Shown: piece by piece, positions 20,833 to 31,799 of the stretch
How the letters are laid out: each line of letters begins with the position of its first letter
How positions within the stretch are numbered: the stretch's first letter is position 1
Assembly: GCA_905233525.1 (NCBI GenBank)
Contig: CAJOEW010000038.1
Coordinates: forward strand, 1-35,020
DNA from: an uncultured Synergistales bacterium
GTDB taxonomy: Bacteria; Synergistota; Synergistia; Synergistales; Aminobacteriaceae
Length of the DNA: 35,020 nucleotides
Reading direction: 5' to 3'
Program-made: the position numbers and the translations under genes
Notes under the pieces: model-generated
Told to the model about the DNA's origin: nothing
Seen by the model: the letters and a program-made list of their open reading frames with translations, nothing else
Databases searched by the model: none

Positions 20833-20841
20833 TGATATACT
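20833..20841 (+). promoter_or_regulatory. Candidate extended -10 promoter of the rpsB operon
   Basis: TGATATACT (TG-N-TATACT) precedes a 5' leader of about 100 bases before rpsB. The -35 region is not recognisable. The position would start the transcript just before the folded leader at 20858-20934. Confidence 0.45.
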
Positions 20842-20857
20842 TGCTTGCAATTACACA

Positions 20858-20934
20858 CGCCCGTATAAAAATTCAAAGGTCTTGCATTTGTTGCAGGTGC
20901 GTTATTACGGGCGGAGGATCAAAAACCTTTGGGA
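20858..20934 (+). ncRNA. Structured rpsB leader, pseudoknot-like, covering the ribosome binding site
   Basis: Three helices can be drawn. Helix 1 pairs CGCCCGTA (20858-20865) with TACGGGCG (20906-20913), 8 perfect pairs. Helix 2 inside it pairs CTTGCA (20881-20886) with TGCAGG (20892-20897), with one G-U pair and a 5-base loop. Helix 3 pairs CAAAGGT (20874-20880), which lies inside the loop of helix 1, with ACCTTTG (20925-20931) outside it, and two G-U pairs could extend it into the GGGAGG at 20931-20936. This makes a pseudoknot that would hide the rpsB ribosome binding site. Control by S2 itself is a reasonable inference, since ribosomal proteins often bind their own leaders. I do not recognise it as a named RNA family. 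Confidence 0.55.
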
Positions 20935-20948
20935 GGTATAAATTTAAA

Positions 20949-21764
20949 TTGTCAGTAGCAAGTATGAAACAACTTCTTGAATGCGGAGTACATTTCGGTC
21001 ATCAAACCAGACGCTGGAATCCAAAAATGAAGCCTTATATCTTCACAGAACGTAACGGAGTTTATATCATTGACCTTCAAAAAACCGTTAAAGGTCTTGA
21101 TAAAGCTTACGAGTTCATTAGAACTACTGCAGCAGAAGGCGGGCGCGTCCTGTTCGTTGGTACAAAGAGACAGGCTCAGGAAACAATCAGAGATGAAGCT
21201 ACACGTTGCGGCCAGTATTATATAAATCAACGTTGGCTCGGCGGATTGATGACGAATTTCCCGACAATCAGAGGCCGTATAAATCGTATGCTTGAGCTTA
21301 GAAAATATGACGAAGAAGGAACTTGGGACGAGTTCACTAAAAAAGAAACAGCCGCCCTCAAAAAAGAACAGATTAAGCTCGAAAAATATCTCGGCGGTAT
21401 CGCTAATATGACCGGTGTACCTGATGCAATTTTCTTAATCGATCCAAGACGTGAAGAAAACGCTATTGCTGAAGCCCGTAAGCTCGGAATCCCTGTCGTT
21501 TCGATCGTTGATACAAATTGCGATCCTGAAATAATTGATTATCCTATTCCAGGCAATGACGACGCAATCAGAGCTATTAAACTCATTACAGGATTGATGG
21601 CTAACGCTGTTATTGAAGGCCGTCAGGGTGAAGATGCCGTGATCATTCCTGTTCAGACTTTGAGCGCTCCGGATATCATGACCGATGAAGAAGCAATCGA
21701 AGAACGCGAAAGATTACATGAAGAATACGACGGCAATATTGACGATGACAACTGGAGGAATTAA
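20949..21764 (+). CDS. rpsB: 30S ribosomal protein S2
   Basis: Small-subunit ribosomal protein S2 (271 aa). It carries [23 protein letters not shown] at the N-terminus, then [51 protein letters not shown] and the ending [14 protein letters not shown] with an acidic tail. The TTG at 20949 is the chosen start: GGGAGG (20931-20936) is 12 bases upstream, and the next residues [10 protein letters not shown] match normal S2 starts. An upstream in-frame ATG at 20832 would add 39 Cys- and Arg-rich residues that are really the structured leader. It is followed by tsf after 6 bases, the usual order. Confidence 0.97.
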
Positions 21765-21770
21765 ATAATT

Positions 21771-22367
21771 ATGCCAGAAATTACAGCAGCAATCGTAAAA
21801 GAATTACGCGAACGCACCGGCTCAGGTATGATGGACTGCAAAAAGGCTCTTGCTGAAACCGGCGGTGATATGGAAAAAGCTATAGACTATTTGCGCGAAA
21901 AAGGTTTGGCTAAAGCTGCGAAGAAAGCTGAACGCAATGCTAAAGACGGCAGAATTTTTCATTATGTCCATAATAATTTTAAGGTCGGCGCATTGCTTGA
22001 GCTTGATACAGAAACGGACTTTGTAGCACGCACAGATGAATTTAACGAACTTGGCCATGAGATCGCTATGCAAATAGCTGCCGCGGCTCCTTTATATGTA
22101 AAACCTGAAGACGTGCCGCAAGAAGTTCTTGACCGTGAACGCGAAATTTATAAACAGCAGTTGCTCGACGAAGGTAAACCGGCTGATAGATTAGATAAAA
22201 TTATCGAAGGCAAGCTCAGAAAATATTATGAGACTAACTGCTTGTTAGAACAGGAATATATCCGCGACGATAAGAAGAAAATTAAAGACTTGATCACCGA
22301 AATGATCGCTAAACTCGGTGAAAATATAGTCGTAAAACGCTTCGCAAGATTCGTAATCGGCGAGTAA
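21771..22367 (+). CDS. tsf: Elongation factor Ts
   Basis: Nucleotide exchange factor that releases GDP from EF-Tu. The N-terminal domain reads VKELRERTGSGMMDCKKALA. The EF-Tu contact motif TDFV is at 82-85 (in LELDTETDFVARTDEF), and the ending gives GENIVVKRFARF. At 198 aa it is the short form, with a single reduced core like that of Thermus, and not the long E. coli type. It begins 6 bases after rpsB and shares its transcript. A strong hairpin lies just after the stop codon. Confidence 0.96.
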   Translation: MPEITAAIVKELRERTGSGMMDCKKALAETGGDMEKAIDYLREKGLAKAAKKAERNAKDGRIFHYVHNNFKVGALLELDTETDFVARTDEFNELGHEIAMQIAAAAPLYVKPEDVPQEVLDREREIYKQQLLDEGKPADRLDKIIEGKLRKYYETNCLLEQEYIRDDKKKIKDLITEMIAKLGENIVVKRFARFVIGE

Positions 22368-23150: not shown

Positions 23151-23156
23151 TTTATA

Positions 23157-23671
23157 ATGGCGGACGAATTAAAAAATTTACGCGATAACATGGACAAGGC
23201 TGTATCTTTTCTTCAGAGCGAATATTTGGCAATCAGGACAGGACTTACGGAACTCCAACGCCAATTAAACAATTAGCTAATATTACTACACCTGAAAGCA
23301 GAGTCATTCAGATTGCGCCGTTCGATAAAACGAGCTTGAAAGCTATCGAAAAAGCTATACTCGCTGCAAATTTGGGTATGACTCCTCAAAATGACGGTGT
23401 AGCAATTCGTTTGACTTTACCGGAATTGACAAGAGCACGCCGCGTCGAATTAACTAAACTGCTTGCTAAAAAAGCTGAAGAGTCAAAAGTCGTGATCAGA
23501 AATTATAGACGCGATACAATTGAGCTTTTAAAGAAACAGGAAAAAAATTCGGATATCACTGAAGACGATCTGAAAAAATTTACAAAGGACGTTCAGGATA
23601 TCACCGACAATTATATTAAAAAAATCGACGAAGTTTATAAAACAAAAGAAAAAGAAGTTCTCGAAGATTGA
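23157..23671 (+). pseudogene. frr: Ribosome recycling factor, broken by a 40-base internal loss
   Basis: RRF splits the post-termination ribosome with EF-G. The ATG at 23157 has GGAGG 11 bases upstream (23141-23145) and gives 29 normal residues ending YLAIRTG. The frame then shifts and stops at 23274-23276. The rest of RRF (YGTPTPIKQLANITTP, SRVIQIAPFDKTSLKAIEKA, and so on, ending KEKEVLED) resumes in another frame from 23246. Against the E. coli protein, the 14 residues between IRTG and YGTPTP are missing. Two leftover bases plus 40 lost bases account for them exactly and would give 184 aa, the normal RRF length. As written, it cannot make RRF. A second start at 23336 would omit the conserved N-terminal half of domain I. 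Confidence 0.92.
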
Positions 23672-31181: not shown

Positions 31182-31799
31182 TTAATCGTCTTTCCACTCA
31201 GTTTTGAACAAGTAGATCGACCATGTTTTTTTACCGTTCCACTTATACGGCAGGGCTTGAGCTATAAAAGTTGCCGGACGGTCTTTTTTGTTCTTGATGT
31301 TATAAATTTCGCCGGTCATCGTTATCAATTTGCCTTCTTGATCGACTTCTTTTATATCAGCGTAATATATTGTGTCATCTGTCCCGATCGGTGCGTCAAA
31401 ATGAAAATTCTTACCGTCAAAAGTTATTTCCGAGCTTATTTCACCTTTTGAGACTTTACCTAAATCGATATCGAAATATTTTTTAACTGACGCAGCAACC
31501 GACGAATAAGAGATCGTATACATGGTGCCGCAATCTTTATCTTTGCATTTCTGAATCAGCTTTTTATTGTTAATAAAATTATGAGCCACTCCAAAATATA
31601 TCAGCGAGTCAATATTTTCAGGATTGCCCAAATGAAGCGTATCAGAAGCTTCACCGTCATCGATATCAAAATTAAATAAGCTGACTTCCGTAAAGTTGCT
31701 CAAAAAAATATTCATGCGGTCGCGTTCTGAAGCTGCGTATGAAACTGTCGAAAGAGATAATAAAATTACGAGCGTTAAAAATTTTTTGAAAGTGTTCAT
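31182..31799 (-). CDS. Exported protein of unknown function
   Basis: I do not recognise this 205-aa protein. It has a clear signal peptide (KKFLTLVILLSLSTVSYA, cut before ASERDR), so it goes to the periplasm or beyond. It has no lipobox Cys at the cleavage site. The mature part is rich in Asp, Lys and aromatic residues, with alternating patterns that suggest beta structure. One close pair of Cys (QKCKDKDCGTMY) could form a disulfide. AAGGAG (31813-31808) is 8 bases before the ATG. It may be transcribed with galT, whose start is 90 bases downstream. A run of T follows the stop codon on the minus strand without a strong stem. Confidence 0.75.
   Translation of the reverse strand: MNTFKKFLTLVILLSLSTVSYAASERDRMNIFLSNFTEVSLFNFDIDDGEASDTLHLGNPENIDSLIYFGVAHNFINNKKLIQKCKDKDCGTMYTISYSSVAASVKKYFDIDLGKVSKGEISSEITFDGKNFHFDAPIGTDDTIYYADIKEVDQEGKLITMTGEIYNIKNKKDRPATFIAQALPYKWNGKKTWSIYLFKTEWKDD

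What the first reader, a model, noticed from the sequence alone, without database searches (positions are those of the whole stretch)
20858..20948. A pseudoknot-like leader appears to hide the rpsB ribosome binding site
An 8-pair perfect helix (20858-20865 / 20906-20913) encloses a 6-pair hairpin, and a 7-pair helix joins the inner loop (20874-20880) to bases 20925-20931 directly before and into GGGAGG. The long pairings are complementary without gaps. I know of no named family with this layout; control of rpsB-tsf by free S2 is the likely role.
Basis: partly seen in the sequence, partly recalled or inferred. Interest (0 to 1): 0.7.

Follow-up and report, generated by a model that had tools for sequence, protein, structure and literature searches.

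The report
rpsB leader of the known S2 class
The folded RNA start of this ribosomal-protein gene is real and is kept by evolution, but it is a diverged copy of an already described control element (the rpsB/S2 leader, known from E. coli and other bacteria) by which ribosomal protein S2 most likely limits its own production.

Summary
Relatives support the fold: across 71 distinct Synergistaceae leaders, all seven tested P1 pairs carry double-sided changes (95% of cells paired), as do six of seven pseudoknot pairs. A covariance model from the genus finds one strong place per genome, the rpsB leader. A second model, from other Synergistaceae genera, finds rpsB leaders across the phylum (20 of 20 checked precede rpsB), in Bacilli, Clostridia, Desulfuromonadales and Fusobacteria, and in E. 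coli. The E. coli leader is Rfam RF00127 (t44), and the layout is the 'rpsB motif' of Meyer et al. 2009 (PMC2704228), so the claim that no named family has this layout is wrong. S2 autocontrol of rpsB-tsf is the best explanation, by homology, not tested here. 'Hides the ribosome binding site' is half right: the pseudoknot abuts the Shine-Dalgarno sequence but pairs only its first G. Local to this genus (and a few allies): a longer pseudoknot (7-8 bp, not about 3), a reduced upper stem, and in two species loss of the hairpin. A new member of a known kind.

The parts
20833..20841 (+). extended -10 promoter element TGATATACT; transcript start expected near 20848
   Evidence: sequence; a -10 element in 73 of 73 family leaders, extended TGn in 68
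20853..20857 (+). conserved ACACA directly 5' of P1
   Evidence: same element before P1 in most family leaders and in E. coli
20858..20865 (+). P1, 5' strand
   Evidence: compensatory changes at all 7 tested pairs
20874..20880 (+). pseudoknot, 5' strand (CAAAGGT)
   Evidence: pairs with 20925-20931; compensatory changes at 6 of 7 pairs
20881..20897 (+). P3 hairpin (CTTGCA/TGCAGG, loop TTTGT)
   Evidence: helix covaries within the genus; absent in two congeners (L003, L023)
20906..20913 (+). P1, 3' strand
   Evidence: as for the 5' strand
20913..20917 (+). SD-like GGAGG that belongs to the motif, not the ribosome binding site
   Evidence: present in all other family genera and in E. coli; eroded in many congeners
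20925..20931 (+). pseudoknot, 3' strand (ACCTTTG)
20931..20936 (+). Shine-Dalgarno sequence GGGAGG of rpsB
   Evidence: sequence; 12 nt before the TTG start
20949..21764 (+). rpsB, ribosomal protein S2
   Evidence: Pfam PF00318, E 1.4e-100
21771..22367 (+). tsf, elongation factor Ts (second gene of the operon)
   Evidence: open reading frame; identified from its sequence by eye

Best explanation
This is the Synergistaceae form of the rpsB (S2) leader. The mRNA starts about 10 nt before P1 and folds into P1, a junction and a hairpin (P3). A GGT-containing junction strand pairs with ACC just after P1 to make a pseudoknot immediately before the Shine-Dalgarno sequence. When S2 is made in excess over 30S subunits, free S2 (in E. 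coli helped by S1) binds and stabilises this structure. The 30S subunit then cannot start on the adjacent ribosome binding site, so S2 and the downstream EF-Ts are both reduced. Shown here: the fold and its conservation, its place before rpsB only, its match to the E. coli leader, the pseudoknot-SD adjacency. Inferred by homology: binding by S2, the help of S1, repression. Inferred from anatomy only: steric blocking of the SD by the locked pseudoknot.
For: Compensatory changes in P1 and the pseudoknot. One strong place per genome, always rpsB. A model from other Synergistaceae genera finds the E. coli rpsB leader, E 3e-4, which is Rfam t44; t44 finds 18 Synergistota leaders at E <= 0.01. Same architecture as the rpsB motif of Meyer 2009. 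S2 represses rpsB-tsf in E. coli through this 5' region (review PMC10931766; PMC2704228). A gene with five S1 domains is present in this genome. Conserved promoter upstream of P1.
Against: No binding or expression data for this organism. Rfam t44 itself does not match the window at E <= 10. In E. coli the ribosome binding site is reported to lie outside the operator, so direct SD blocking need not apply.
Confidence: 0.87

Rival explanations
1. The structure is conserved, but its ligand is not S2: for example S1 alone, EF-Ts, or no protein at all (a constitutive translation-tuning or mRNA-stability element).
For: Nothing here tests the ligand; S1 is reported as a needed partner in E. coli.
Against: The element precedes rpsB in every genome checked, and the homologous E. 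coli leader answers to S2 (PMC2704228 and PMC10931766).
Confidence: 0.1
2. Switching works through an alternative hairpin: the pseudoknot's 3' strand ACC pairs with GGU of the SD, so the pseudoknot frees the SD instead of blocking it.
For: The window folds this way in the minimum-energy model, and 39 of 73 leaders can form at least three such pairs.
Against: Not possible in 34 of 73 leaders, so not a conserved part; it would make S2 an activator, opposite to E. coli.
Confidence: 0.05
3. The complementarity is chance and has no function.
For: The folding energy of the window sequence is ordinary.
Against: 0 of 4,000 shuffles match it; strong compensatory change; conservation across the phylum and beyond.
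Confidence: 0.01

Closest known systems
rpsB motif (Meyer et al. 2009, PMC2704228)
   Same: Precedes rpsB; P1 capped by a junction with variable P2 and P3; junction strand pseudoknots with the 3' extension after P1; pseudoknot length varies between phyla.
   Different: Synergistota are not named there. In this genus the pseudoknot is 7-8 bp and reaches the SD; 3-5 bp are described in the paper.
Rfam RF00127 t44 (E. coli rpsB leader)
   Same: Same order of elements: ACACA, P1, GGGGT, hairpin, GTGGAGG, ACCCC. Relatives in Synergistota score up to 51.2 bits against a cut-off of 44.
   Different: The window and its genus are not detected by the model; the stem above P1 is reduced and the GGAGG after P1 is eroded in many congeners.
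S2 autogenous control of rpsB-tsf in E. coli (Aseev 2008, read through PMC10931766 and PMC2704228)
   Same: Same operon, same leader class.
   Different: Shown experimentally in E. coli; only inferred here.

Membership tests
rpsB motif / S2 leader (broad class, Meyer 2009) | Lies directly upstream of rpsB (usually rpsB-tsf) | tested here: met
rpsB motif / S2 leader (broad class, Meyer 2009) | P1 helix capped by a junction with variable P2 and P3 | tested here: met
   P1 double-sided changes at 7 of 7 pairs; P3 covaries in the genus; P2 absent, as allowed by the published description
rpsB motif / S2 leader (broad class, Meyer 2009) | Pseudoknot between the junction strand and the 3' extension after P1 | tested here: met
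   83.5% of cells paired, double-sided changes at 6 of 7 pairs; the GGT/ACC to GTT/AAC exchange recurs across the phylum
rpsB motif / S2 leader (broad class, Meyer 2009) | Homology to the experimentally studied E. coli leader | tested here: met
   model R2 from Synergistaceae finds the E. coli leader at E 3e-4; t44 finds Synergistota rpsB leaders. The window is joined to these through its relatives, not by a direct match.
rpsB motif / S2 leader (broad class, Meyer 2009) | Bound by S2 and represses rpsB | not testable with these tools
   needs binding and reporter experiments
Rfam RF00127 t44 (narrow model) | Score at or above the 44-bit gathering cut-off | tested here: not met
   No match in the window at E <= 10; one relative (G075) reaches 51.2 bits. 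The window is therefore not filed as a t44 hit, only under the broad class.

The most novel reading that the evidence does not exclude
In this genus the S2 leader has been remodelled into a compact form close to an H-type pseudoknot. The upper stem is reduced, and the pseudoknot grows to 7-8 bp and runs up to the SD. In two species the P3 hairpin is gone while the pseudoknot is kept by compensatory changes. S2 would then control ribosome access directly through the pseudoknot, unlike E. coli, where the ribosome binding site is reported to lie outside the operator.
Probability: 0.35. Interest if true: 0.45.

Novelty: new member of a known kind. Interest (0 to 1): 0.3.

Why it matters
It places the S2 leader throughout Synergistota, where the Rfam model t44 mostly misses it, and supports the view that this is one of the widespread ribosomal-protein leaders. 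The natural P3-less forms (L003, L023) suggest a minimal operator, P1 plus pseudoknot, small enough for structural work. How S2 represses is still described as unclear even in E. coli (PMC10931766).

Tried and rejected
Folding energy as evidence: uninformative. Consensus promoter and terminator scan: nothing found; the promoter was recognised instead by conservation. Direct Rfam search of the window: nothing at gathering score, only chance hits at E <= 10. The first family-wide pseudoknot count was off by one column and was corrected; one search was a malformed string. An SD-sequestering hairpin as the conserved element: rejected, possible in only 39 of 73 leaders. A second weak R1 match in the window (31685-31782, minus strand, 14.9 bits, E 0.45) is taken as chance. 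Fu 2013, Aseev 2008 and Mustoe 2019 are not held, so their content is cited only through other papers.

Full report
The observation. All three helices exist at the stated coordinates. The outer helix and the pseudoknot are fully Watson-Crick; the hairpin has one U-G pair. The pseudoknot's last base (20931) is the first G of GGGAGG; rpsB starts at TTG 20949 and tsf follows at 21771. In 4,000 dinucleotide shuffles of 20850-20940 an 8-bp helix occurs 126 times, but never together with a 7-bp downstream pseudoknot. Minimum free energy is ordinary, so comparison had to decide.

Source. The window lies in a 1.64-Mb draft genome. The closest named S2 proteins are those of rumen Synergistaceae and Synergistales drafts (86-91% identity), then Fretibacterium fastidiosum (79%). 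G015 of the same family (L058) has a contig of the same length as F. fastidiosum NC_021038 (2,728,333 bases) and the same leader, so the family is Synergistaceae.

Relatives. rpsB was located in 78 of 83 family genomes (one of these matches is below the family cut-off) and the upstream DNA was read. Nearly every leader shows the same order: extended -10, ACACA, P1 5', GGT, hairpin, P1 3', GGAGG or a remnant of it, ACC, SD. The -10 element is present in all 73 anchored leaders and extended in 68, which puts the expected transcript start upstream of P1.

Covariation. Within the genus (20 sequences, A1), six of seven P1 pairs have double-sided changes and 96% of cells pair; sliding the partners by one to three columns drops overall pairing from 90% to 30-51%. 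Across the family, strands were cut out by motif anchors and joined (A2, 71 distinct rows). P1 has double-sided changes at 7 of 7 pairs and the pseudoknot at 6 of 7, no shuffle reaches the observed scores, and every slide is far lower (pseudoknot alone). The four-pair pseudoknot core taken alone is weaker: one slid version scores as high on covariation, though not on percentage paired. Cautions: anchors were placed by hand, four leaders of one genus (g2, GGTT/AAAC) were re-registered by one base, and related sequences are not independent. The same exchange, GGT/ACC for GTT/AAC, recurs in other families of the phylum (L095-L099, L102, L103, L107, L108 against the rest). The window's own pair C20874-G20931 stands where most congeners have U-A.

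Specificity. Model R1 (genus) gives one strong place per genome, the rpsB leader: 58.4 bits, E 7.5e-12 in the window's genome. By my count, among congeners with rpsB and its upstream DNA intact, 37 of 38 have it; the exception is G046. In G048 the leader runs into rpsB with bases missing, perhaps an assembly fault. Model R2 was built from 14 leaders of other genera; P1 and the upper stem there have double-sided changes at 15 of 17 pairs. R2 finds 79 of 188 Synergistota genomes in 40 of 63 genera, one place each. All 20 that I fetched from other families lie directly before rpsB.

What it is. The E. coli rpsB leader (L078) is Rfam RF00127 t44 at 83.5 bits. It reads ACACA-CACGTATC...GGGGTGCCC...GATACGTG-GAGGCATAACCCC, element by element like the Synergistaceae leaders. 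R2 finds it at 24.6 bits, E 3e-4. t44 in turn finds 18 Synergistota leaders at E <= 0.01, one above its cut-off. R2 also finds the region just before rpsB in Bacilli, Clostridia, Desulfuromonadales and Fusobacteria: 55 of 80 loci at E <= 1, all at about the same distance from the start codon (the 80 include ten Synergistota loci). Meyer et al. 2009 describe this element as the rpsB motif: P1, a junction with variable P2 and P3, and a pseudoknot between J2-3 and the 3' extension, in Proteobacteria, Cyanobacteria and some Firmicutes. The window's leader is a diverged member; t44 itself does not match it, so membership is claimed for the broad class only.

What is local. In the genus the pseudoknot has a median of 8 contiguous pairs (G-U included), against 3 in other family genera, and a median of 11 pairs encloses it instead of 17 (rank correlation -0.70, not corrected for descent). 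It ends at or within 2 nt of the SD in most congeners, but 4-11 nt before it in most other genera. Genera g5, g8 and g11 share the long form. L003 and L023 have lost the P3 hairpin and keep the pseudoknot with exchanged bases (CAGGT/ACCTG, ATAGGTT/AACCTAT). This lies within the variation that Meyer et al. report (stems short or absent), so I do not call it a new kind.

Mechanism. S2 in excess represses rpsB-tsf in E. coli, with help from S1; how it does so is described as unclear, with the ribosome binding site outside the operator (PMC10931766). A gene with five S1 domains is present here. I therefore infer S2 autocontrol (about 0.87). Direct blocking of the SD by the locked pseudoknot is plausible in this genus but unproven (about 0.5).

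Noticed in passing
window 23151-23671: The gene after pyrH looks like frr (ribosome recycling factor) but is split between two frames: MADELKNLRDNMDKAVSFLQSEYLAIRTG ends near 23243 in one frame and YGTPTPIKQLANITTPE... continues in another, apparently with some residues missing. Since the protein is normally essential, an assembly fault or a real frameshift are both possible.
   Followed up: partly
L003 1405-1461 and L023 1405-1465: Two congeners have rpsB leaders without the P3 hairpin, close to plain H-type pseudoknots, with compensated pseudoknot pairs.
   Followed up: partly
window 20913-20917 and its counterparts in relatives: An SD-like GGAGG directly after P1 is kept in other Synergistaceae genera and in E. 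coli, although no start codon follows it closely; in many congeners of the window it has decayed (GCAAG, GAAGA).
   Followed up: partly
L060 (G046): One congener has no recognisable S2 leader before rpsB; the upstream DNA holds a different hairpin-rich sequence, perhaps an insertion or a mis-assembly.
   Followed up: no
L180, L183, L186, L194 (three Eremiobacterota and one unnamed bacterium), upstream of rpsB: These rpsB leaders resemble each other (for example ...GATGG...CCAGAAAGG before the start) but are not found by model R2; they may hold a different or strongly diverged leader.
   Followed up: no
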